NCBI RefSeq assembly: GCF_000341735.1 | Contig: NZ_KB455575.1 | Span: 4,007,924 to 4,071,923, forward strand | From: Methylotuvimicrobium buryatense 5G | Lineage (GTDB): Bacteria > Pseudomonadota > Gammaproteobacteria > Methylococcales > Methylomonadaceae | Direction: 5' to 3' | DNA length: 64,000 bases | In this document: positions 50,545-64,000 of the stretch, in pieces | Layout: every line of letters begins with the position of its first letter | Numbering within the stretch: the stretch's first letter is position 1 | Position numbers and translations under genes: made by a program | Notes under the pieces: generated by a model | Told to the model about the DNA's origin: nothing | Databases searched by the model: none | The model's input: only the letters and a program-made list of their open reading frames with translations

Positions 50545-50732
50545 TTAAGGAATATGCACAAAGTAACTTATACAAGTAGTAGGCTTTGTGGCGGTTTGGT
50601 GACTCGCTTGACAGGACGCCGTGAATACGTCCATGTAGGCTTGACGGCGGCTATCCCTGTCGCCGACACCTGTCAATCGAGCCACCAAACCTCCTCCAAC
50701 AGTTGTCTAAGTTATTTCATGCTCGTTCCTAA
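50545..50732. mobile_element. R3 element, intact copy 1
   Basis: 188 bp from TTAAGGAATATGCACAAAG to CATGCTCGTTCCTAA. The ends are imperfect inverse complements (ATAACTT-type inner part, TTAGGAACGAG/TTAAGGAATAT outer part). Inner arms GGCGGTTTGGTGACTCG and CGAGCCACCAAACC pair in full. Nearly identical to the copy at 57729. It begins ten bases after the stop of the c-di-GMP enzyme. Confidence 0.85.
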
Positions 50733-52993: not shown

Positions 52994-53304
52994 TGAGGTT
53001 TTTAGTATATGGGGTTATGAAAACAAATGCGATTCTAACAGAATTCAGGCTGTAGGAAACTCAATTTGACAATATGAAAAGTATTGTGATTTTAGACTGT
53101 TAGCGTAAAAAACGGTCAGTGTAGCAAGTCGTTAACAAGTCTGGACAGTTGAAACAAGTCGATCAATGAAGACTCAAGAATAATGATAGCTAATTGTCAT
53201 TAAGCATTTTTATCAGGCGTGATGCTTGAGTCAATAGCTAATTACTTGCAGATGGAATAAAGCCTTGAATTTTTAATCAAGCTGTCCGAAAAAAGACGAT
53301 AAGC

Positions 53305-54160
53305 GCGAAGATTTTATTTCGGCACCAGGGGGCCCGTCAAAGGGCGTTGTGAATACGCCCATGCAGGCTCTATGCCGGCATCCATGCCGGAAAAGCCTTT
53401 GCCGAACATTTCGGCGCTTCCTTAAGCAATGCCGAAATTCGAAGTGCGAAAGGTATAGTTATCACGAAATCCTTGCTCTTGGGAGTCGACACCAAGATGG
53501 TGATTGTATAGTCACCGAAGCAATCGACTATGGCATTGAAAAAATTGATAATCGCTACCGTAACGTCATAACTACCAGCTCAATATGTCGTTACGGCAGT
53601 CCATAGCGGAATAACGAAGCATTAATTAGGTATGTGTAAATGCCCGGTCGGAAATGGAAAGTTTGCCTTCGCCTCTTGCGCATGTTGCCTAACAGCTTAT
53701 TTATTTTTCCTGATTAGCAAGATGCTTCGGCTTGCCAAAGCCAGGTGTCGGAGCAGGGTCCAGTCGTAGTCGCAAAAACTAAAATATGCTGTTACCCAAG
53801 CTCCAACGCTCATCGTTATACATAAGTCAAAAATTTCTCTTTTGCAATCTTAGCCAATGAGACCTCGATGCCATTTATTGCCACCCAACGAAACCGGCTT
53901 CGAAATCGCGGATCAGGGGATCGCTCCCACAGAGCGTTCATCGCCGCCTTCGTCGCGACTATCGAAACCAATGACGATCAATATCCACAGATTTATCAAA
54001 CATCAACGCTCCCAGTGATTCGATAAACTCAGTTCAGCAAGTGTGCCGGCACTTATGTATAACGATGAGAGCTCTAGCTTGGGTAACCTGTTCAGGAAAC
54101 TGGAGCTTCCGGGGGGGGGGGCTTTCCTAAGCTGGATCTTGGGAAAGAGCGTGATGTGGC
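53305..54160. repeat. Repeat-rich upstream region of pmoCAB
   Basis: R4 copy at about 53305-53457; an AGCTCCAACGCTC arm near 53793; R6 at 53889-53965 (CTTCGAAATCGCGGATCAGG, GGGATCGCTCCCACAG, CGCCTTCGTCGCGA); AGCTCTAGCTTGGG and ACTGGAGCTTCC R2-like arms at 54069-54145 with an 11-G run at 54111-54121. Short open frames here fall in repeats and look non-coding. The segments 52994-53300, 53460-53780 and 54160-54420 show nothing else I can identify. Confidence 0.65.
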
Positions 54161-54422
54161 TTGGCCGTTTTTAGCTTGACGCGCATGGCTTACGAACTCC
54201 GTCCTGCTAGGGAGATGCTGAATCTTTGGGCTTTAGCTGAAGAAACTTGCTAATCAGGTTATTTTTTGGCATTGCTATGATCGAAATGGAATGAAAATGA
54301 TCCGAAAAACAGGCTTTTGTAAGCAACCGATAAATAAGAGGTTAAGGGCTGGAAGATAAATGAAAATCAGGGTGGATAAAGAACTAATGATTAATAGCGC
54401 ACTAGATCGGTCATAAATTAAG

Positions 54423-54450
54423 TTGACAAGCCTTTTCGAAATGATAAACT
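54423..54450 (+). promoter_or_regulatory. Candidate sigma-70 promoter of pmoCAB
   Basis: Consensus TTGACA at 54423-54428, 16-bp spacer, then TAAACT at 54445-54450 (four of six). The transcript would have a leader of about 95 bases. Other weaker sites exist in the 1.5-kb gap, so start sites need mapping. Confidence 0.55.
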
Positions 54451-54500
54451 GAGCAGCACCAAATTGGACTGGTAGAGCTTAAATAAAAGCGTTAAAGGGA

Positions 54501-54549
54501 TGTTTTAAAACAACCGCCCTTCGGGGTTTTTAAAAATTTTTTAGGAGGT
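54501..54549 (+). promoter_or_regulatory. Leader structures and ribosome-binding site of pmoC
   Basis: TGTTTTAAAACA is a perfect 12-bp palindrome (54501-54512). CCC-TTCG-GGG (54517-54526) is a stable UUCG tetraloop hairpin, followed by an A/T run and the perfect AGGAGGT at 54543-54549, four bases before the ATG. Confidence 0.65.
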
Positions 54550-54553
54550 AGAA

Positions 54554-55306
54554 ATGGCTGCTACAACTGAGTCAGTTAAAGCTGATGCTGCAGAAGCACC
54601 ACTTTTGAACAAAAAAAATATAATTGCCGGTGCATCTTTGTACCTGGTATTTTATGCTTGGGTTCGTTGGTATGAAGGCGTTTATGGCTGGTCCGCCGGT
54701 CTTGACTCTTTCGCTCCGGAATTCGAAACTTACTGGATGAACTTCCTGTACATCGAAATGGTTCTGGAAGTATTGACAGCTTCTATCTTGTGGGGTTATA
54801 TCTGGAAAACTCGTGATCGTAAAGTGATGTCAATCACTCCACGTGAAGAGTTGAGAAGACATTTTACTCACTGGACATGGCTAATGATGTACGGCATCGC
54901 GATCTACTTCGGTGCTAGCTACTTCACAGAGCAAGACGGTACATGGCATCAAACCATCGTACGTGATACTGACTTCACTCCAAGTCATATCATTGAGTTC
55001 TACTTGAGCTACCCAATCTATATCATCACTGGTGGCGCTTCTTTCTTGTACGCTAAAACAAGACTTCCAACTTACCAACAAGGTTTGTCTCTGCAATACC
55101 TGGTTGTTGTTGTAGGTCCATTCATGATTCTGCCAAACGTTGGTTTGAACGAGTGGGGTCATACTTTCTGGTTTATGGAAGAATTGTTTGTTGCTCCTCT
55201 GCACTATGGTTTCGTCTTCTTCGGATGGTCGGCTCTGGGTGTATTGGGTGTAATCAACATCGAGTTGGGCGCATTGTCCAAGCTGCTGAAAAAAGACTTA
55301 GCATAA
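54554..55306 (+). CDS. pmoC: Particulate methane monooxygenase subunit C
   Basis: 250 residues, about six membrane helices. The CuC ligands are present as Asp128, His132 (QDGTWH) and His145 (PSH), and the CuD ligands as Asn199, His203 (LNEWGH) and His217 (PLHYG); spacing equals that in the structurally solved enzymes. Together with PmoA and PmoB it oxidises methane to methanol in intracytoplasmic membranes. Codons are strongly biased to GGT, CCA, TTC and ACT, unlike the GC-rich genes at the left, as expected for one of the most abundant proteins in the cell. First gene of the operon, behind a perfect ribosome-binding site. Confidence 0.98.
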   Translation: MAATTESVKADAAEAPLLNKKNIIAGASLYLVFYAWVRWYEGVYGWSAGLDSFAPEFETYWMNFLYIEMVLEVLTASILWGYIWKTRDRKVMSITPREELRRHFTHWTWLMMYGIAIYFGASYFTEQDGTWHQTIVRDTDFTPSHIIEFYLSYPIYIITGGASFLYAKTRLPTYQQGLSLQYLVVVVGPFMILPNVGLNEWGHTFWFMEELFVAPLHYGFVFFGWSALGVLGVINIELGALSKLLKKDLA

Positions 55307-55333
55307 GTTAGGTCTGTAAAAACTATCTCCTGG

Positions 55334-55359
55334 TCGCTTCTTCTTCATTGAAGAAGCGA
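55334..55359 (+). promoter_or_regulatory. pmoC-pmoA intergenic hairpin
   Basis: TCGCTTCTTC and GAAGAAGCGA form a perfect 10-bp stem with a 6-base loop (TTCATT). No T-run follows, so it is more likely a processing or stability element between pmoC and pmoA than a terminator. Confidence 0.75.
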
Positions 55360-55414
55360 TACAGAAAATAGTAAAAATAAATAATAATTTTTAAATCCTT
55401 TAGGAGGTAAGCTA

Positions 55415-56158
55415 ATGAGCGCATCTCAATCAGCTGTTCGTTCACGCGCAGAAGCTGTCAAAGTTTCTCGTACGTTCGACTACATGATTCTCTTTACGGC
55501 GTTTTTTGTTGTTCTCGGTGGTTATCATATCCACTATATGTTGACTGGCGGTGACTGGGATTTCTGGACCGATTGGAAAGATAGACGTCTATGGGTAACT
55601 GTAGCGCCAATCGTTTCAATTACTTTCCCTGCTGCGGTTCAAGCTGTACTTTGGTGGCGCTATCGCATCGCTTGGGGTGCAACTCTGTGTATCTTAGGTC
55701 TGTTACTCGGTGAGTGGATCAACAGATACTTCAACTTCTGGGGATGGACATACTTCCCAGTTAACTTTGTATTCCCTTCAAACCTGATGCCAGGTGCGAT
55801 CGTATTAGACGTTATCCTGATGCTTTCTAACAGCATGACTCTGACTGCGGTTGTTGGTGGTTTGGCTTGGGGCTTACTGTTCTATCCAGGTAACTGGCCA
55901 ATCATTGCTCCATTACATGTTCCTGTTGAATACAACGGCATGATGATGACTCTGGCTGACCTTCAAGGTTACCACTATGTTAGAACTGGTACTCCTGAGT
56001 ACATCCGTATGGTTGAAAAAGGAACACTGAGAACATTTGGTAAAGACGTTGCTCCAGTATCAGCGTTCTTCTCTGGTTTCGTAAGTATCTTGATTTACTT
56101 CTTGTGGCACTTCTTCGGAAGATGGTTCGGAAGTGAAAAATTTGTACAAGGTTCTTGA
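55415..56158 (+). CDS. pmoA: Particulate methane monooxygenase subunit A
   Basis: 247 residues, the standard PmoA length, with about seven membrane helices. Family sequences GGDWDFWTDWKDRR, WTYFPVNFVFPSNLMPGA and the end WHFFGRWFGSEKFVQGS identify a type I methanotroph PmoA rather than an AmoA. AGGAGGT six bases upstream. Same high-expression codon use as pmoC. Confidence 0.98.
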   Translation: MSASQSAVRSRAEAVKVSRTFDYMILFTAFFVVLGGYHIHYMLTGGDWDFWTDWKDRRLWVTVAPIVSITFPAAVQAVLWWRYRIAWGATLCILGLLLGEWINRYFNFWGWTYFPVNFVFPSNLMPGAIVLDVILMLSNSMTLTAVVGGLAWGLLFYPGNWPIIAPLHVPVEYNGMMMTLADLQGYHYVRTGTPEYIRMVEKGTLRTFGKDVAPVSAFFSGFVSILIYFLWHFFGRWFGSEKFVQGS

Positions 56159-56251
56159 TACAAACTTAATAATCAAAAAACCACGGTATATTCATTTCGA
56201 ATCTACTGGATGCTTATAAAACTATTAATTCTCTGTAATAGAGGAGGATAT

Positions 56252-57496
56252 ATGAAAATAATAAAAGACAAAGTTGCTAAATTGTCCTTTGTCGCACTGC
56301 TCGTATCTGTAACGGCAGCGATGTTTTACACTCCGACAGCATCTGCTCATGGTGAGAAATCACAGGCGGCGTTCATGCGTATGCGGACCATTCACTGGTT
56401 CGATTTGAACTGGTCTAAAGACCAAGTTGCAGTCAATGAAACTATGTCAATTTCAGGTAAATTCCACGTATTCGCGGGATGGCCGGAAACTGTCGATAAG
56501 CCAGAAGTTTCTTTCTTGAACATCGGTATTCCTGGTCCTGTATTTATTCGTGCAGGTTCTTGGATCGGTGGTCAATTAGTTCCTCGTTCAGTAACTTTGG
56601 AACTTGGCGAAACTTATGAGTTTAAAGTTTTATTGAAAGCACGTCGTCCAGGTGACTGGCACGTTCATACTATGATGAACGTTCAAGGCGGTGGTCCTAT
56701 CATTGGCCCAGGTAAATGGGTAACTATTACTGGTAAAATGAGCGATTTCAGAAACCCAATCACTACTTTGACCGGTGAAACCATTGATCTGGAAAACTAT
56801 GCATTAGACGGTGTCTATGGATGGCATTTGTTCTGGTACGTTTTGGGTATTGCTTGGATGGTATACTGGTGCCGCAAGCCTGTATTCATTCCACGTAGAA
56901 TAGCTGTCGATGCTGGTAAAGCCGATTCATTGATCACACCAACTGACAAAAAAGTTGGTATGGCTTTCGCTGCTGGTACTATGGCAATCGTTGCTATCTC
57001 AATGGGTCAAGCCAACGAGAAATATCCTGTTACGACTCCATTGCAAGCAGGTTTGATGCGCGGTATTAAATCTTTAGAACTTCCACAACCTACAGTTTCT
57101 GTAAAAGTTGTTGACGCTTCTTACCGTGTACCAGGTCGTGCAATGCAAATGACTTTGGAACTCGTTAACAACGGTGATTCTGCAGTTCGTTTGGCTGAGT
57201 TCAACACAGCTGCTGTTCGTTTCTTGGATTCTGAAGTGTACGAAGACGACACTAACTATCCAGATGATTTGTTAGCCGAAGACGGTTTGACTGTTAGCGA
57301 TAACAGCCCGCTGGCTCCAGGCGAAACAAGAACAGTTGAAGTTACTGCTTCTGACGCAGCATGGGAAGTTTACCGTTTAGCTGACTTGATCTACGATCCA
57401 GACAGCCGTTTCGCGGGTCTGTTGTTCTTCATCGATGAAGACGGCAACCGTCAAATGGTAATGGTAGATGCACCATTGATCCCAACATTCATCTAA
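56252..57496 (+). CDS. pmoB: Particulate methane monooxygenase subunit B
   Basis: 414 residues from the ATG at 56252 (GAGGAGG at 56241-56247); an upstream in-frame ATG at 56210 has no such site. Signal peptide 1-32, so the mature protein begins with His33, which with His137 and His139 (DWHVHT) makes the CuB site; His48 and His72 of the bis-His site are also present. Two periplasmic cupredoxin domains flank two membrane helices (about 190-210 and 235-255). Confidence 0.98.
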   Translation: MKIIKDKVAKLSFVALLVSVTAAMFYTPTASAHGEKSQAAFMRMRTIHWFDLNWSKDQVAVNETMSISGKFHVFAGWPETVDKPEVSFLNIGIPGPVFIRAGSWIGGQLVPRSVTLELGETYEFKVLLKARRPGDWHVHTMMNVQGGGPIIGPGKWVTITGKMSDFRNPITTLTGETIDLENYALDGVYGWHLFWYVLGIAWMVYWCRKPVFIPRRIAVDAGKADSLITPTDKKVGMAFAAGTMAIVAISMGQANEKYPVTTPLQAGLMRGIKSLELPQPTVSVKVVDASYRVPGRAMQMTLELVNNGDSAVRLAEFNTAAVRFLDSEVYEDDTNYPDDLLAEDGLTVSDNSPLAPGETRTVEVTASDAAWEVYRLADLIYDPDSRFAGLLFFIDEDGNRQMVMVDAPLIPTFI

Positions 57497-57535
57497 TGAA
57501 TAGCTTGGTCTAATTATATAGACTAAGTAGGGTTA

Positions 57536-57569
57536 AAGCCCTCGTGCTGAAAAGCACGGGGGCTTTTTT
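57536..57569 (+). terminator. Rho-independent terminator of pmoCAB
   Basis: AAGCCCTCGTGCT-GAAA-AGCACGGGGGCTT: a 13-bp stem with one G-T pair, a GNRA-type loop and a run of T after it. Lies 40 bases after the pmoB stop. Confidence 0.95.
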
Positions 57570-57728
57570 ATTTGTATCGAAAAAGTGAGAGTGTTTGATT
57601 TAGCTTGAATGCGCGACTGGCTAAGGGGTTAAGTAGAAAAACCAGTGGAGAGTTGTCATAAAAGAGCAGTTGACATGTGATGTAGTCGGAGCATACCGTT
57701 TTCGTATTCCTCTGCGCTGCATAAGGGG

Positions 57729-57916
57729 TAAGGAATATGCACAAAATAACTTATACAAGTAGTAGGCTTTGTGGCGGTTTGGTGACTCGCTTGACAGGAC
57801 GCCGTGAATACGTCCCTGTAGGCTTGACGGTGGCTATCCCTGCCGCCGACACCTGTCAATCGAGCCACCAAACCCCCTTCCAACAGTTGTCTAAGTTATT
57901 TCATGCTCGTTCCTAA
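57729..57916. mobile_element. R3 element, intact copy 2
   Basis: 188 bp from TAAGGAATATGCACAAAATAACTT to CATGCTCGTTCCTAA, nearly identical to the copy at 50545. A solo R8 left end (AAAAGAGCAGTTGACATGTG) sits 70 bp before it, near 57659. Confidence 0.85.
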
Positions 57917-58017
57917 GTGATTTAATAGCAACTTGGAAAGAGTGGATATGTATTGGGTGTTTTACTCCCTTTTGATTGAAAAACCGCCTAAGAATAAAAG
58001 GTATGGGATATGTCTAT

Positions 58018-58130
58018 CGAGGCAGCAATTCCCAGTTTGAGCAGTTTCGCCGATTTTAGAGTGTGGGGTATGCCTGCCGACATCCTCGCTAGCTGCACCC
58101 AATATCTTCATAAAGCTAACCATTTTTTGA
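58018..58130. repeat. R5 left-end fragment
   Basis: AGCAATTCCCAGTTTGAGCAG, GAGTGTGGGGTATGCCTG and GCCGACATCCTCGC are the R5 left end joined directly to its right-interior sequence, i.e. an internal deletion. The matching right end (CCCAAATGGGGAATTGCTG) lies near 58845-58863, and a related CATCCTCGCTAGCCACACC piece near 60642. Confidence 0.6.
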
Positions 58131-58170
58131 GTATAAAGGGAGTAGCTTGATGCGTATGGTGTGTATGTCT

Positions 58171-58322
58171 TTTGCACTTCAAATTTCGGCAGTGCCAGAG
58201 GAGGAGCCTGGGTGTCCGATAAAGGCTTTGCCAGCATGGAGCTGGGATAGGGGCTACATGAACGTTTCACGGCGCCCTTTAGCGGACACCCAGGCGCCGA
58301 ATTTTGATCTACGACGGGTATT
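58171..58322. repeat. R4 hairpin element
   Basis: TTTGCACTTCAAATTTCGGC at the left and GCCGAATTTTGATCTACGACGGGTA at the right, with CCTGGGTGTCC and GGACACCCAGGCG inner arms. The stretch 58323-59173 that follows holds only the R5 right end near 58850; I see no gene in it. Confidence 0.8.
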
Positions 58323-59173
58323 ACTCCCATTTGGTTGAAAAACCGTTAAACCTAAATTCGGAAGTTTAACCATGAAGTTGATGGAGTTCATAAAGCATTT
58401 CAAGAAATTATAAACATTCTCGCTAACCGTCTTGGTGAGCCAATGATCTATGTGTATATTCTGGCCCAAACTGAACACTTTCCGGATTTTCCAGAATCGG
58501 TGTTCCAGTTACCAGAATCCCATCTAACGCATTGTTTATCTAATCAGTTTATCCTTCCCGCCTTATTGTGGAAAAGATAAGGTCAGCGAATAGAACGGCC
58601 ATTCGAAAATTACGAGAAGTACTCAGGCTTCGCTACAGCGCCGTATTAAACAAAAAAACCTAAATTCGCAAGTCAGGCCACTAAAATCACGAAATACACC
58701 ATAGAGTAGACACTAAGTTGGCGCTTATGGAGGGGTGAACGGCGGCTTGAAGGGTAAGTGTTGGCAACTCAAAGCAGAAAAATGCTCTTGAATGCTCAGC
58801 ATTCATTACATCTTTGCCAAGCACATCCCACGCCCTTTTTGATCCCCAAATGGGGAATTGCTGCTAGCTAAGCCTTATACCTTCATGAGGTTAGCTAATT
58901 TTTGACTGCAAATCTAGAAAAAATTCACTATGAAGATCATAAAGAATAAGAAGTTGATTCAATAAATTGGTGTGCCTTCTTATGGGGGTGGGCAGCGCAA
59001 TGTTTATAGCTTGTTTTTTATTGCCATGAGGATAATGAAGGGAAGAGAATTGAGTGCTTTGTGAGCGGTCTCAATATCACGAATGAACTCAATAGATAAA
59101 CTCAATGCGGTAATACAGCATTTTCAAATCAAACACTCCAATGGCAATAATGATGACATAGACTGTTAATGGT

Positions 59174-59333
59174 TATACCCATCGCACTTCAAATTTCGTC
59201 ATTGACGCGTGGAGGTGCCGGGGTGTTCGGCAAAGGTCTTGACAGCAGGGGTGCTGTCAAGAGCCTACATGGACGTTTCACGGCGTCCATTGACGAACAC
59301 CCCTGCGCCGAAATTTGACCAGCAAAGGGTATA
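59174..59333. repeat. R4 hairpin element, best copy
   Basis: 160 bp from TATACCC to GGGTATA. Arms GGGGTGTTCGGCAAAGG / TTGACGAACACCCC and CTTGACAGCA / TGCTGTCAAG pair, making a three-part stem. Between the arms is GAGCCTACATGGACG, also found in the other copies and, inverted, as CGTCCATGTAGGCTC in R3. Confidence 0.88.
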
Positions 59334-59552
59334 GTAACGCGATTAAATAGAATACGCTGTGTCTTCAAGTTATTCATACTCTTCATGGTAGAACTAAAAT
59401 CATATTTTTTTGAATCAACGCCCGTTCTTATAAAGATTTAGCTCGCCCGATAGGTTAGCGGGACTGCACGGTTAATATAGTGAGTGACTTAATGAGCTTC
59501 AGGCGCTTAATGGTTAAGCTATCAAATTTAGGATATAGGGAATAATTATATA

Positions 59553-59706
59553 TTTCCTATGTCAAATTTCGGCACTGCTTGAGGAGGCGCCGGGGGGTGC
59601 GGAAAAGGCTTGGCCAGCATGGAGGTGGCATAGAGGCTGCTAGTATGTATTAACGGCGTTCTTTGACGGACATCACGGGGCCGAATTTTGATCTACGATG
59701 GGTATA
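59553..59706. repeat. R4 hairpin element
   Basis: TCCTATGTCAAATTTCGGC and GGCCGAATTTTGATCTACGATGGGTATA at its ends, with a diverged middle. Followed by AT-rich DNA to 59970 without features. Confidence 0.75.
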
Positions 59707-59974
59707 CGTCTAAAAGTTTTGATGGGTGGGCTCTATGGATGGGCTCTTAATTCGCTACATATATTGAAAACTATTGCGGCAATTAATGTGGAGATGGGGC
59801 TGATCGCATGGGAACCTGCTTAAAGAATTAGAAATATAATTCGAAGCGCGGTAAAGGCTATTAAAAAGTTGGAAAGCTGAGGAGAATATTTCTAAGAAAA
59901 ATTGCGGAAGGAGCAGGGAGAGGAATAAGGTGACGAGATGATTGTATGGAGTTGAGAAAGCTAAAATTGAATAT

Positions 59975-60006
59975 GAATCCAGCTTATTTGAAAACAAGCT
60001 GGATTC
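59975..60006 (-). terminator. Hairpin after the small lipoprotein gene
   Basis: GAATCCAGCTT and AAGCTGGATTC form a perfect 11-bp stem around a 10-base loop, 14 bases beyond the stop of the minus-strand gene. The following T-run on that strand is weak, so it may be a stabilising 3' structure. Confidence 0.65.
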
Positions 60007-60019
60007 ATTAGGTCAAAGC

Positions 60020-60136
60020 TTACAATCTAATAGTTGTATTTTCAACTTTTTGTTTGGAGCTATCAGGATCGTCCAGGCAGCCTGTTAAACCAACGATCAT
60101 TAATGCCATAGCTAAAAGTGATAAAACTTTTTTCAT
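60020..60136 (-). CDS. 38-residue lipoprotein
   Basis: Read directly from the minus strand: MKKVLSLLAMALMIVG then lipobox LTGC, and a short mature peptide CLDDPDSSKQKVENTTIRL. A near-perfect ribosome-binding site GGAGGATA (60139-60146 on the plus strand) precedes the ATG. The size and plan resemble entericidin- or Lpp-type small lipoproteins but without their repeats. A hairpin follows the stop. I recognise no family. Confidence 0.8.
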   Translation of the reverse strand: MKKVLSLLAMALMIVGLTGCLDDPDSSKQKVENTTIRL

Positions 60137-60893
60137 ACTATCCTCCAAAAGAATTTATTTTTATATTAATAAAATTACAGTACTAAATGCTTAGCACGGT
60201 ATTTTTATATCATGGCAAAAATATCTATGCAACATTTAAATTAAAATGAGCGTAGATGTCATAATGGTAGGGGGGGAGATTTATGCTAAAAAGTATGTTG
60301 TTGTTTATAGTAAGCTATTGTTCTAAAAAGAAACATAAATAATGAGAATTAACTCGATGCTTACTTGGGTTATTCGAATAGTTCGCTCGTAACTCACGCA
60401 GCTGTATGGTGAAGTCACTCAAGCTTTAGAATGGAGGAATTGTCTGGTCCGGCAATCGGTTTTGGTAAATATTTAGTCCTCCTCTTTTAAAAAGACGACG
60501 GCATGGACAACTAGAGGTAGAACGCAGGAGCAGTTGCCGAGGGGTTAGGTGAAGTTTTTTTAATGAATAACTTTATTCAAAGGGGTAGAGTCATAAGCGC
60601 CAGATTAGAGCCTATTCTCCTCCCTAAAATCTGCGACATCCTCGCTAGCCACACCTCATACCTTCATAAAGCTAACCATTTTTAGAGTATAAAGGGAGTA
60701 TGGTGCGTTTATGGCTTTATTCGTCATATCGGTATGGGTTGTCGATATCCATGGTGCATTGATGTGGTGCTACGCATTGCCATCCTTGGTCCTGGATTCC
60801 GCCAATCCCTGGCGGAATGACGCGTTCCTTCCTTAAATTAGTACTTATGGGGTATAAGTATCTACACATTTTTATCATTTAAAATCATGCTGT
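60137..60893. other. Gene-free AT-rich stretch
   Basis: No frame of useful length with a start site. It contains an R5 remnant near 60630-60660, and GGATTCCGCCAATCCCTGGCGGAATGACG at 60796-60824, a hairpin also seen inside R11. Confidence 0.6.
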
Positions 60894-61053
60894 TATACCT
60901 TTTGCACTTCAAGTTTCGGCGGTGCCCGAGGAGGCTCCGGGGTGTCCGACAAAGGCTTTGCCAGCATGGAGCTGGCATAGAGCCTACATGGGCCTATTCA
61001 CGGCGTCCTTAGGTGAACGCCCCGGCGCCGAATTTTGATCTACGATAGGTATT
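60894..61053. repeat. R4 hairpin element
   Basis: TATACCTTTTGCACTTCAAG at the left and GATCTACGATAGGTAT at the right; arms GGGGTGTCCGACAAAGG and GTGAACGCCCC, with GCCAGCATGG/AGCTGGC inside. Last R4 copy in the window. Confidence 0.83.
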
Positions 61054-61194
61054 TAAAGTTTCTTCTGGTTTATTATGAAGATAGGGACTAAAAATTGAAG
61101 TTTTTAGTCTACTTTTTTATCCTAGATAACAGAAAAATTAACTTAACTAATTGTTTTATAAAGCTGAAAACTTGTGTAGATACCTATGGCTTAT

Positions 61195-61207
61195 GGGGGG
61201 GGGGGGG
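61195..61207. repeat. 13-G homopolymer
   Basis: Thirteen consecutive G, 76 bp beyond the stop of the HTTM gene. An 11-G run lies at 54111-54121. Neither is in a gene or between clear promoter elements. Confidence 0.9.
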
Positions 61208-61283
61208 CTGCATGTTTGAAATGTAGGGGTCTGAATAATTACTATTTATGAGTATAAGGGGAGTAAATTGCAAAACCTTGTCG

Positions 61284-63233
61284 TTATTCAGGTGTGACAG
61301 TAGGCCAATAGCTTGATTTAAGGGAGGCATGATTGAGCAGCATTTGGCTTAGGTTGCTATGGAATTGCTGATGTTTCCAATGGACTGTGCCAAGGTTTGA
61401 CCATTCTCCACTGAGGTTTTGATTCAGCAAGTCATAAACCCAGAATGATGGCGCCGAGTTTGTCTTGATCTTGATGGTGAACACAGTGTCATCAAGGTTT
61501 AGCTCAAGTCTATGGGACCAGTATGCAGTGATTTTCATGATCAGTTTGTTGAGCCTGATAACATCGATATTCGGTGTGACGGCAATATTGGCCCACATTG
61601 AATGAACGCGTCCCCAGTGAGGGGCAAGTATTCGCCCTTCTTGGTTGATGAACGGTAACCAGGCTTCATCTCCTTCATTATTGGTATAGGTGATTGCGAG
61701 TAATGAGTCATAGCCCTCAAAATGGTCGTGTAAATAAAGAGCGTGGGGTGTTATACCGATGAATGAATGGGATAGTAACAAAATCGAATTGCTGGCCTGG
61801 GTTAGTGTGAGCGTCATAGGGTTGTTGCGTGTGTCGACATTAAGTCGATATAGCAGTCCGTAGTGCAAGGAGCTATTGATTTGTAGTATACAAATGATAA
61901 AAAGGGCTTTAGACAGCGTTTTTAAGTTTTTTCTTAAACGAGGGTTGTCGGTCTCAAATAAGCGGTCATAAAAGGTGGGTAATTTACATTGGGTTGTATT
62001 TGGGATGATGCAGTCTTGATTGCATGGCGTGCGTTGTCTGTTGTCGGCTATGTTGCGATAGATTGTTTTGGTCAGATGATAAATGCCAGGAATACTCATT
62101 AACCAGCCGAATAAGAATGGATAGCGCATTTTTATTAGGATTCGTATATAGGTATTGATGCCGCTATAAACTTTTCCGTTTTCATCGACGGCATAAAGAT
62201 CCGTTAGTAGGGTGTTTAGTGGTATGGAAGATAGAGCGGGTTGTTTATTTGAAAAGGTTTGAGCGTCTTTAAATTCAATGCATTTGAAAATATCGAAATG
62301 ATTGACGGTTAATGCGGTCCGGTTGCATAAAGGGCAGTCTTTGTCGTAATAGACAAGTAATAAAGGCTGAGTGGGTCTTAAGGTTTTCGCTAAGCAACGC
62401 CACCATGAAAATGGAACCAGTAGAATGTAAAAAATGAGCATGCTAAGGCCAAACGGATAAATGTTTAGAGAAATCGTTATGCCAAGGTGTAAGCCAATGC
62501 CAATAAAAAGGTAGATGGGGCGTAAGTGACGGTTTGAAAATAAGAATAGAAAGCTGAATTGAAAAATGATAATGGTATAGCCAATCATCTTTTGTAAGAC
62601 TTCCTGGTTGAGCAGCCAGGACATATTGATCGCGGATACATAATAAGGCTGTGTGGACGGAAGCCAGGCGCCTAGGCCGTTTCGCCAGTGTTCAGCAAAT
62701 AATTTATGAATCGCCGAGTCGAAATATAGAAAGCCCAGGCAGATCAATATAGGGAGGTGGTAGCTGAGGATTGAAACAGTAGGTTTTTGATGTTGCGAAT
62801 AATGACGAAAAGGTGTGCTGAGTTTTAGCCTTAATTGATCAATTGCAAAGGCTTTGTCGGTCGGCATGAAGAGTAGAAAAAATCCTGCTCCGGTCATAAA
62901 TGCATCGAATCCGCCGTCAAAGTCGCGCTGCATGGGGGTAAATTGTACAAAGACGATCCAAAAAATGTAGCTGACAATCAGGGCGTATTGGCATTGGTAG
63001 CCAGCGATTATGAATAAGGCAGCAATCGCCCAGAGGCAAAGAAAAAAAGGAATGAGTGGGAATTCGACGTCAATGTAAGGAGTAGGGTCGAAAATTAGAT
63101 GGTTGAAATATAACAAGAAGCAGATTTCTTGAAATAACACCATTCCGTAGAATAGTCGGAATAAGCCGATGCCGGTGGCTGGGGCGGGTTTAGTATGGAG
63201 TTGGTATATCTTGGTGTAAATAAAATGATACAT
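61284..63233 (-). CDS. HTTM-family membrane protein fused to a DCC1-like thioredoxin domain
   Basis: 649 residues. Residues 15-300 contain about eight membrane helices with the HTTM pattern (vitamin K-dependent carboxylase-like: RLFYGMVLFQEI, MQRDFDGGFDAFMTGAGFFLLFMP, YFDSAIHKLF). Residues about 305-420 form a DCC1-type domain beginning LLVYYDKDCPLCNRTAL with the DxxCxxC motif. Another helix (near 450) and a soluble C-terminal domain of about 180 residues follow. Such fusions may couple thiol redox chemistry to a membrane reaction; the reaction is unknown. It stands alone, with AT-rich codon use. Confidence 0.87.
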   Translation of the reverse strand: MYHFIYTKIYQLHTKPAPATGIGLFRLFYGMVLFQEICFLLYFNHLIFDPTPYIDVEFPLIPFFLCLWAIAALFIIAGYQCQYALIVSYIFWIVFVQFTPMQRDFDGGFDAFMTGAGFFLLFMPTDKAFAIDQLRLKLSTPFRHYSQHQKPTVSILSYHLPILICLGFLYFDSAIHKLFAEHWRNGLGAWLPSTQPYYVSAINMSWLLNQEVLQKMIGYTIIIFQFSFLFLFSNRHLRPIYLFIGIGLHLGITISLNIYPFGLSMLIFYILLVPFSWWRCLAKTLRPTQPLLLVYYDKDCPLCNRTALTVNHFDIFKCIEFKDAQTFSNKQPALSSIPLNTLLTDLYAVDENGKVYSGINTYIRILIKMRYPFLFGWLMSIPGIYHLTKTIYRNIADNRQRTPCNQDCIIPNTTQCKLPTFYDRLFETDNPRLRKNLKTLSKALFIICILQINSSLHYGLLYRLNVDTRNNPMTLTLTQASNSILLLSHSFIGITPHALYLHDHFEGYDSLLAITYTNNEGDEAWLPFINQEGRILAPHWGRVHSMWANIAVTPNIDVIRLNKLIMKITAYWSHRLELNLDDTVFTIKIKTNSAPSFWVYDLLNQNLSGEWSNLGTVHWKHQQFHSNLSQMLLNHASLKSSYWPTVTPE

Positions 63234-63292
63234 TTAATAAAGCAATGTGCTGATTAAATGTACAAATTATAAGGTATTTAGGCGGCGAGTGG

Positions 63293-63345
63293 ATAAAAAA
63301 ACAAAGGCCGCCTCTAATACTTTAACGGAATTAGCAGGGGCGGCC
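63293..63345 (-). terminator. Terminator of the 43-residue gene
   Basis: GGCCGCC (63306-63312) pairs with GGCGGCC (63339-63345), extended by TAAT/ATTA inside. On the minus strand the stem is followed by TTTGTTTTTTTA. A second small hairpin AAACTAAC/GTTAGTTT covers the stop codon region (63361-63381). Confidence 0.85.
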
Positions 63346-63379
63346 TTGTAATCTTTATTTAAACTAACGGAGTGTTAGT

Positions 63380-63511
63380 TTATTTGTCTTCGTCGTTAGG
63401 CTCAGCAAAAACCCATTTTACTAAGAAGTAACCGGCTGCGATAACGACAATCGCACCGATCATGCCAGCTGGTTCTTTTAACATTTCAGTCAAATCTAAG
63501 ATCGCACCCAT
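63380..63511 (-). CDS. 43-residue single-helix membrane protein
   Basis: Read directly: MGAILDLTEMLKEPAGMIG, then a helix IVVIAAGYFLVKWVF and an acidic tail AEPNDEDK. One membrane helix (about 17-35). Codons are the same optimal set as pmoCAB (GGT, ACT, CCA, TTC, AAA), the promoter is near consensus and the terminator is strong, so high expression is likely. A ribosome-binding site AGGA lies upstream. No family recognised. A structural subunit of a membrane complex, possibly pMMO itself, is an inference from expression signals and proximity only. Confidence 0.85.
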   Translation of the reverse strand: MGAILDLTEMLKEPAGMIGAIVVIAAGYFLVKWVFAEPNDEDK

Positions 63512-63573
63512 GAGTGTCCTACCTGTATTTTTATATTTTAGAAAATGCTATAGACATAGCAAATGAGCCATCA

Positions 63574-63601
63574 ATGATACTTTAGACACAGCTAATGTCA
63601 A
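63574..63601 (-). promoter_or_regulatory. Near-consensus sigma-70 promoter of the 43-residue gene
   Basis: On the minus strand TTGACA (63601-63596), a 16-bp spacer, and TATCAT (63579-63574). The leader would be about 55 bases. Same -35 and spacing as the pmoC candidate. Confidence 0.8.
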
Positions 63602-63675
63602 GATTTATTGTTGAAATTTTAAAGCGATGCACAATAAGTTAGGGGAATGTAAAAACTAGAGTAGCGGTGGGTGTG

Positions 63676-63684
63676 TGTTATAAT
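63676..63684 (+). promoter_or_regulatory. Extended -10 promoter of the final gene
   Basis: TGTTATAAT: a perfect TATAAT (63679-63684) with the TGn extension, 39 bases before the ATG at 63724. No clear -35. Confidence 0.65.
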
Positions 63685-63723
63685 CCGAAAGACCTATAAA
63701 ATTCAAAGTAAAAAGGTGGGAAA

Positions 63724-64000
63724 ATGAATATAAAAATGAGAATACATGCAATATGGCCCGCTGTTTTATTGGCTTTTGCAGCGAATGCGGAAGTCTTATT
63801 GAAAGATCAGTCTGAAATTTTGGGAAGTTGGAATCTCTATGCGGAATCTGCTAAGTTGGATGGAGAGAAAAAAGCGTTAAGCGTCGAGTGGGATTTTAAA
63901 ACTGACGGGGTGTTGAACACTAAATCGATCGATACGTTCGGGCGAACTAAGACGTTTGAAGTGGCATTAAAATATTCTGTCGAAGATGGCATGATTAGAA
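63724..64000 (+). CDS. Secreted hypothetical protein, cut by the window end
   Basis: The first 92 residues are visible. Signal peptide to about residue 22 (AIWPAVLLAFAANA), then a mature part starting EVLLKDQSEILGSWNLYAES. The ILGSWNL turn followed by beta strands (VEWDFKTDGVLNT) resembles small lipocalin-like domains. GGTGGGA precedes the ATG. It is divergent from the 43-residue gene. The end lies outside the window. Confidence 0.75.
   Translation, partial: MNIKMRIHAIWPAVLLAFAANAEVLLKDQSEILGSWNLYAESAKLDGEKKALSVEWDFKTDGVLNTKSIDTFGRTKTFEVALKYSVEDGMIR

What the first reader, a model, noticed from the sequence alone, without database searches (positions are those of the whole stretch)
63380..63601. 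Strongly expressed 43-residue membrane protein near pmoCAB
It has a near-consensus promoter (TTGACA-16-TATCAT), optimal pmo-like codons, a strong terminator and one membrane helix. Structures of some methanotroph pMMOs show extra helices that were not assigned to PmoA, B or C. This protein is a reasonable candidate for such a subunit, or for a factor shaping intracytoplasmic membranes.
Basis: partly seen in the sequence, partly recalled or inferred. Interest (0 to 1): 0.65.

Follow-up and report, generated by a model that had tools for sequence, protein, structure and literature searches.

The report
Tiny conserved partner of methane monooxygenase
A 43-residue membrane protein that has no entry in the family databases searched is found almost only in bacteria that carry the copper methane-oxidising enzyme pMMO, which makes it a strong, testable candidate for a missing small subunit of that enzyme.

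Summary
Window 63380-63511(-) encodes a conserved 43-aa one-helix membrane protein (median dN/dS 0.13) with pmoCAB-like codons (index 0.684; 0 of 310 background segments as high), a conserved promoter and a strong terminator.

Pfam, NCBIfam and solved chains give no significant match. In the Beijerinckiaceae-like sample 11 of 11 pmoA+ and 1 of 138 pmoA- genomes carry it; 0 of 6 genomes with an sMMO-chain match but no pmoA do. In Methylococcales 107 of 107 pmoA+ genomes of families f1, f2, f4, f6 carry it; no match was found in 15 pmoA-like genomes of f3/f7/f8 or in three-copy amoA genome G162. Methylocystis, whose pMMO structure shows an unidentified helix, encodes it.

Most likely it is a small accessory subunit of methanotroph pMMO (0.6). 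Binding is not shown. Against: no solved chain matches; 18 Methylococcales genomes carry it without a pmoA hit; pmoA is near in 8 of 80 named loci, while another gene (HTTM-like/DCC1) is near in 77. The 2025 supernumerary-helix paper could not be read.

The parts
63380..63511 (-). ORF of 43 aa, MGAILDLTEMLKEPAGMIGAIVVIAAGYFLVKWVFAEPNDEDK: amphipathic N-terminal helix, break before Pro14, one membrane helix, conserved K/R-W near its end, acidic tail
63574..63601 (-). promoter TTGACA-16-TATCAT
   Evidence: position conserved in 108 of 122 distinct gamma leaders
63512..63567 (-). 5' leader (start assumed from the promoter) with Shine-Dalgarno AGGTAGGA; small inverted repeat TGCTAT-GTCT-ATAGCA
   Evidence: the leader as a whole does not fold better than shuffles
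63286..63382 (-). terminator region: hairpin starting at the stop codon and a GGCCGCC/GGCGGCC stem followed by a T-rich tail
   Evidence: z -5.2
54554..57496 (+). pmoC, pmoA, pmoB (pmoCAB), the proposed partner enzyme
   Evidence: Pfam AmoC, AMO, Monooxygenase_B
61284..63233 (-). 649-aa membrane protein with a DCC1-like domain and an SdpB-like stretch (HTTM label recalled), next gene on the same strand; conserved neighbour
   Evidence: in the held flanks of 77 of 80 named loci
63724..64000 (+). start of a divergent 129-aa gene with a signal-peptide-like N-terminus; neighbour in 38 of 80 named loci

Best explanation
A small one-helix accessory subunit of methanotroph particulate methane monooxygenase. 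Shown: the gene is real, under purifying selection, has pmo-like codons, and its presence tracks pmoA in two proteobacterial classes. Inferred: it is made in amounts comparable to pMMO, lies with helix 2-12 at the membrane surface and helix 14-34 through the membrane, and packs against the membrane part of PmoA/PmoC or between trimers, stabilising the enzyme or its arrays. In that case it would account for the unassigned helix in Methylocystis pMMO structures. Stoichiometry, position and effect on activity are guesses.
For: Co-occurrence: family of G247 (taken to be Beijerinckiaceae) 11 of 11 pmoA+ against 1 of 138 pmoA- (Fisher 9e-16, genomes not independent); order of G247, 1 of 150, and the same genome is the only pmoA+ one; Methylococcales families f1, f2, f4, f6: 107 of 107 pmoA+ carry it. 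pMMO rather than methanotrophy: 0 of 6 genomes with an sMMO gamma-chain match and no pmoA carry it, and inside genus g361 the pmoA+ genome G704 has it while G623, G656, G721 (sMMO match, no pmoA) do not. Codon usage like pmoCAB. Conserved promoter. Named Methylocystis plasmids (M. parvus OBBP, strain MJC1) encode it, and the Methylocystis Rockwell pMMO crystal structure contains an 'unidentified helix' (PMC8098663, passage read).
Against: No physical evidence. No PDB chain matches significantly in four queries (window, Methylococcus-like, profile A1, Methylocystis-like; best E 0.72, 1.1, none, 0.58), although pMMO entries 9cl1-9cl5 are in that copy; as I recall these are native-membrane structures whose paper reports identifiable supernumerary helices, which may be other proteins. 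18 of 151 Methylococcales genomes have it with no pmoA hit; 15 with a pmoA-like gene and the three-copy amoA genome G162 gave no match. The profiles were built from the families that have it, so divergent forms could be missed. One weak hit (E 0.006) in a genome without pmoA, G367, is a 31-aa ORF with some likeness (L137), so a distant relative outside pMMO organisms is not excluded. Usually unlinked to pmoCAB, whereas an HTTM-like/DCC1 gene is near in 77 of the 80 named loci, which are the best matches and so biased to one lineage. Extra densities in the M. capsulatus ICM map are attributed by their authors potentially to lipids (PMC9445010, passages). The two-class pattern may rest on very few gain and loss events.
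Confidence: 0.6

Rival explanations
1. A factor that shapes or seeds intracytoplasmic membranes (curvature or lipid packing) rather than a part of the pMMO complex.
For: Amphipathic helix plus membrane helix, pmo-like codon usage, presence with pMMO, which sits in ICMs and may itself trigger ICM formation (PMC9445010, passages).
Against: No match in the three-copy amoA genome G162, which I take to be an ammonia oxidiser; ammonia oxidisers also have ICMs (recalled). One short protein, no oligomer evidence.
Confidence: 0.14
2. A partner or substrate of the neighbouring HTTM-like/DCC1 membrane protein (61284-63233), for instance in maturing pMMO or disulfide handling.
For: That gene is in the held flanks of 77 of 80 named loci, its match centre within 1.5 kb in 76 of them, and also near the gene in family f2 (L047, L048).
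Against: Not found beside the small gene in the fetched loci of families f4 (6 loci of 10 kb) and f6 (5 loci of 6-10 kb), in the alphaproteobacterial loci, or in some f1 loci (L010, L016, L019, L032, L039); a strong terminator separates the genes; its codon index is 0.405, that of an ordinary gene.
Confidence: 0.12
3. A small subunit of another electron-transport complex (for example the quinone or cytochrome partner that feeds pMMO) confined to pMMO methanotrophs.
For: Single-helix small subunits of oxidases are known (CcoM, 36 aa, named in the abstract start of PMC10433244 in the listing; CydX recalled).
Against: Methanotrophs that use only sMMO share downstream C1 and respiratory enzymes (recalled), yet 0 of 6 genomes with an sMMO-chain match and no pmoA carry it.
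Confidence: 0.1

Closest known systems
Unidentified helix in the Methylocystis sp. Rockwell pMMO crystal structure 4PHZ
   Same: One extra helix of unknown sequence in pMMO of Methylocystis (PMC8098663, passage); Methylocystis encodes a 37-aa homologue.
   Different: No solved chain matches our sequences significantly, and chains of unknown residues are not in that library; fit to density not tested.
AmoX, AmoY, AmoZ of archaeal ammonia monooxygenase (PMC10030591)
   Same: Small, mainly helical accessory subunits conserved with the enzyme and highly expressed; in one archaeal family their genes are scattered (passages).
   Different: Described there as unique to ammonia-oxidising archaea and larger (AmoY and AmoZ 9.6 and 12.8 kDa); no sequence comparison was made here.
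CydX / CcoM-type single-helix oxidase subunits
   Same: Under 50 aa, one membrane helix, accessory to a bioenergetic membrane enzyme (works-like; recalled apart from the listing of PMC10433244).
   Different: No family match above cut-off in Pfam or NCBIfam.
PmoD
   Same: Methanotroph membrane protein linked to copper/pMMO (recalled).
   Different: PmoD is larger with a periplasmic domain (recalled); not compared here.

Membership tests
pMMO subunit | present in genomes with a methanotroph pmoA (PF02461 match) | tested here: met
   107 of 107 (Methylococcales f1, f2, f4, f6; three of these pmoA matches are weak or partial: G769, G808, G823) and 11 of 11 (family of G247)
pMMO subunit | absent where pmoA is absent | tested here: inconclusive
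   137 of 138 pmoA- genomes of the G247 family lack it, among them 6 of 6 with an sMMO-chain match, but 18 Methylococcales genomes have it without a pmoA hit
pMMO subunit | physically bound to PmoABC | not testable with these tools
   needs native gel, cross-linking or density fitting
pMMO subunit | sequence found as a chain in solved pMMO structures | tested here: not met
   no significant match; chains of unknown residues only are not in that library
Unidentified helix of Methylocystis pMMO | encoded by Methylocystis, one helix of suitable length | tested here: met
   helix length from AlphaFold on the window homologue only
Unidentified helix of Methylocystis pMMO | side chains fit the density | not testable with these tools
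   no maps available
Core subunit of all copper membrane monooxygenases | present with every amoA/pmoA homologue | tested here: not met
   no match in 15 pmoA-like genomes of f3, f7, f8 or in G162 with three amoA copies; a highly diverged form could be missed
CydX/CcoM-type small oxidase subunits | sequence family match | tested here: not met
   no such family among the hits, all below cut-off
Obligate partner of the HTTM-like/DCC1 gene | adjacent wherever the small gene occurs | tested here: not met
   77 of 80 named loci, but not in the fetched f4, f6 and alphaproteobacterial loci

The most novel reading that the evidence does not exclude
An ancient fourth subunit of methanotroph pMMO, shared by alpha- and gammaproteobacterial methanotrophs and missed because it is 37-46 residues long; it is the unassigned helix seen in Methylocystis pMMO and marks methane-oxidising copper monooxygenases off from ammonia- and other hydrocarbon-oxidising ones.
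Probability: 0.38. Interest if true: 0.82.

Novelty: new member of a known kind. Interest (0 to 1): 0.62.

Why it matters
pMMO loses activity when taken out of its membrane, and structures show a helix or densities that were not assigned (PMC8098663 and PMC9445010, passages). A short sequence that goes with the enzyme gives structural groups something to fit and geneticists something to delete, and it may be needed for active recombinant pMMO. If confirmed, it would also give a sequence marker separating methanotroph pMMO from related monooxygenases.

Tried and rejected
Chance ORF: rejected by conservation, dN/dS and codon usage. Known family: the Pfam and NCBIfam hits of the small protein and its homologues all lie below cut-off; weak Pfam names such as DUF6019, SieB and FeoB_associated are treated as chance. 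Phage or plasmid gene: no match in phages; in viral contigs 26 stretches matched the pattern and none was confirmed; the window protein has no plasmid match, but the alphaproteobacterial form lies on three Methylocystis plasmid records. Nine weak hits of the phylum scan (E 6e-4 to 9e-3) were set aside: none of those nine genomes has a PF02461 match, and a regular-expression look at the matches found no short ORF with the MGAIL-type start. One of them, L137, does show a 31-aa ORF with partial likeness (LEL...TPL...FFRWV); it could be a distant relative. Structured leader RNA: no Rfam match at 53000-64000; the window leader folds no better than shuffles (z -0.2); inverted repeats in 119 leaders are only slightly longer than in shuffles (5.2 against 4.6). 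General linkage to pmoCAB: rejected. Transcript ranking: the Methylomonas DH-1 paper says four of its ten most expressed genes encode hypothetical proteins (PMC6373157, passages), but the table is in a supplement not readable here. The CRISPRi screen in M. capsulatus (PMC13108547, passages) and the quantum-refinement paper (PMC12576850, passages) gave nothing on this protein in what I saw. Literature: nine searches, five with capped lists (20 of 257, 20 of 29, 25 of 27, 25 of 214, 25 of 38 shown), listed no paper that by title and abstract start describes this protein. Tucci and Rosenzweig 2025 (reference seen) and two earlier structure papers are not held, so prior description cannot be excluded.

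Full report
Names. I call the window's order Methylococcales because the named relatives bear such titles; Beijerinckiaceae and Rhizobiales for the family and order of G247, Methylococcus-like for genus g32 and ammonia oxidiser for G162 are inference. 'pmoA+' means a match to Pfam PF02461, which also catches amoA and other relatives.

What is there. On the minus strand at 63380-63511 lies a 43-codon ORF with ATG, a strong Shine-Dalgarno and a TTGACA-16-TATCAT promoter at 63601-63574. The stretch from the stop on folds into two hairpins, the second a GC-rich terminator (z -5.2). The pmoCAB genes (54554-57496, Pfam confirmed) are 5.9 kb away, facing it. The window's PmoA best matches the solved chain 6cxh, which I recall as Methylotuvimicrobium alcaliphilum 20Z; the window genome has one PF02461 match.

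Is it real. In the window genome and 60 relatives, 49 of 61 encode it. The median dN/dS is 0.127 over 2378 pairs, from 115 distinct gammaproteobacterial coding sequences, after dropping pairs that were nearly identical or saturated. Against a reference set of the three pmo genes its codon adaptiveness is 0.684; the pmo genes score 0.68-0.71 on themselves (optimistic), their 43-codon segments 0.42-0.84, and none of 310 segments of 43 codons from other ORFs of the window exceeds 0.549. The small gene was not in the reference. The promoter pattern TTGAC[AT]-16-TAnnnT sits 87-105 nt before the ATG in 108 of 122 distinct gamma leaders, 0 of 12 alpha leaders, and 0.2% of shuffled leaders.

What it looks like. 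Invariant residues across 28 diverse members are M1, G2, L5, P14 and W33. AlphaFold with 24 sequences gives a helix 2-12, a break at residue 13 before Pro14 and a helix 14-34, mean pLDDT 84, pTM 0.48. Residues 2-12 are amphipathic by inspection. The members read out are 37-46 aa; the alphaproteobacterial ones end right after the membrane helix (37 aa).

Who has it. Methylococcales sample (151 genomes; profile A2): f1 77, f4 36 and f6 10, each of all printed genomes of those families, and f2 2 of 3; the remaining genomes (f3, f5, f7, f8 and two whose rows were not printed) none. Against PF02461: both 107, pmoA only 15 (f3 1, f7 12, f8 2), small protein only 18 (f1 2, f4 13, f6 3), neither 11; I counted these from the printed rows and inferred the unprinted ones. 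Three of the 107 pmoA matches are weak or partial (G769, G808, G823). Fisher p for that table is 0.002, modest because of the 18 and the 15. The profiles were built from f1, f2, f4, f6 (A1) plus alphaproteobacterial members (A2), so a strongly diverged form elsewhere could be missed.

Phylum sample (398 genomes; profile A1): 11 reach E 0.01, but only the window genome and G247 are strong; G247 has two pmoA. The PF02461 scan of 398 genomes of the phylum found four matches, three over the cut-off: the window genome, G247, and G162 with three copies; G162 is not among the 11 matches, whose sample I take to be the same. Order of G247, 150 genomes: one match to each, the same genome. Family of G247, 149 genomes: small protein in 12, pmoA in 11, all 11 among the 12; the twelfth, G601, is in the same genus as five of them. 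The sMMO gamma chain PF02964 is in 11; six of these lack pmoA and all six lack the small protein; one of the six, G701, is a much weaker sMMO match (135 bits against 267-297 for the best match of the others) and may be another monooxygenase. In genus g361, G704 has pmoA and the small protein, while G623, G656 and G721 have an sMMO match and neither of the two. Genomes of one clade are not independent, so these counts amount to a handful of evolutionary events.

Named examples. The collection scan found 183 confirmed relatives and kept the best 80; 72 of the 80 titles name a methanotroph genus, family, order or symbiont, 8 say only 'uncultured proteobacterium' or 'Gammaproteobacteria bacterium'. 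Methylocystis parvus OBBP (two records) and Methylocystis sp. MJC1 carry it on plasmids, with no gene listed at the place (regions of two of the three read); that gene table is known to be incomplete.

Neighbourhood. pmoA lies in the held flanks of 8 of 80 named loci; of 38 loci with both flanks near 10 kb, 3. By contrast the 649-aa HTTM-like/DCC1 gene is present in 77 of 80 (match centre within 1.5 kb in 76) and the divergent secreted-protein gene in 38 of 80. These 80 are the best matches and so mostly one lineage. The HTTM-like/DCC1 gene was not found in the fetched f4, f6 and alphaproteobacterial loci, nor in some f1 loci (L010, L016, L019, L032, L039). In one alphaproteobacterial genome, G684, pmoA and the small gene are 13-14 kb apart on one contig, and in an f2 genome, G044, 8-9 kb. 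The near-constant neighbour is therefore a lineage feature, while the link to pMMO is by co-occurrence.

Mechanism. A 43-residue protein of one membrane helix, with pmo-like codon optimisation and presence tied to pMMO and not to sMMO, is best read as a small accessory subunit of pMMO. Steps shown: gene reality, selection, codon bias, co-occurrence. Steps inferred: abundance, insertion, contact with PmoA/PmoC or between trimers, effect on stability or arrays. Published context: an 'unidentified helix' is drawn in the Rockwell structure (PMC8098663, passage); the M. capsulatus ICM map has densities not fitted by the model, which the authors say potentially correspond to lipids, and array formation goes with higher activity (PMC9445010, passages); archaeal AMO has three extra small subunits (PMC10030591, passages).

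What speaks against it. No solved chain matches significantly (best E 0.58-1.1 where anything was listed), in a library that holds pMMO entries 9cl1-9cl5, which I recall as native-membrane structures. I recall that their paper (Tucci and Rosenzweig 2025; reference seen, paper not held) calls supernumerary helices identifiable; if those were given sequences, they are other proteins. Chains of unknown residues are not in that library, so the orphan Methylocystis helix could not have been found either way. A weak 31-aa look-alike in a genome without pmoA (L137) leaves a distant relative possible. A divergent paralogue sits in mercury-resistance operons of Methylocystis, so at least one relative does something else. 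The membrane-shaping and HTTM-like/DCC1-partner readings remain open.

Verdict. The family is uncatalogued in the libraries searched; whether it is in print could not be settled.

Noticed in passing
window 61284-63233(-): 649-aa membrane protein with a DCC1-like domain and an SdpB-like stretch below cut-off (HTTM label recalled), in the held flanks of the small gene in 77 of 80 named loci; possible maturation factor.
   Followed up: partly
window 63724-64000(+), continuing in L002 from 1842: Divergent 129-aa gene with a signal-peptide-like start, neighbour in 38 of 80 named loci, no Pfam match and only a sub-threshold NCBIfam hit.
   Followed up: partly
L187 and L140 (G247:C5), L188 and L154 (G692:C2), L195:4001-4114 (Methylocystis rosea plasmid): A divergent paralogue (MCDGEGLGLIQMAMTP...) lies in mercury-resistance operons of Methylocystis-like genomes; in the M. 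rosea record it sits just before annotated merT and no gene is listed there; the operons of L187 and L188 were judged by eye.
   Followed up: partly
families f3, f7, f8; G162: Genomes with pmoA/amoA-like genes in which the small protein was not detected; it may separate methane from ammonia and other hydrocarbon monooxygenases.
   Followed up: partly
L137 (G367): 31-aa ORF MLELPMLTPLIIISVAVYFFFRWVVFDMNRQ, weakly like the family (E 0.006), in a genome without a PF02461 match.
   Followed up: no
window 50546-50695 / 57729-57878, 58163-58322 / 59546-59705 / 60893-61052 and others: Dispersed direct repeats of 41-160 nt around pmoCAB.
   Followed up: no
5' leaders of the small gene, e.g. L022, L078: TTGCTA...TAGCAA inverted repeat recurs in many leaders, GCCA...TGGC in others; weak as a structure signal.
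   Followed up: partly
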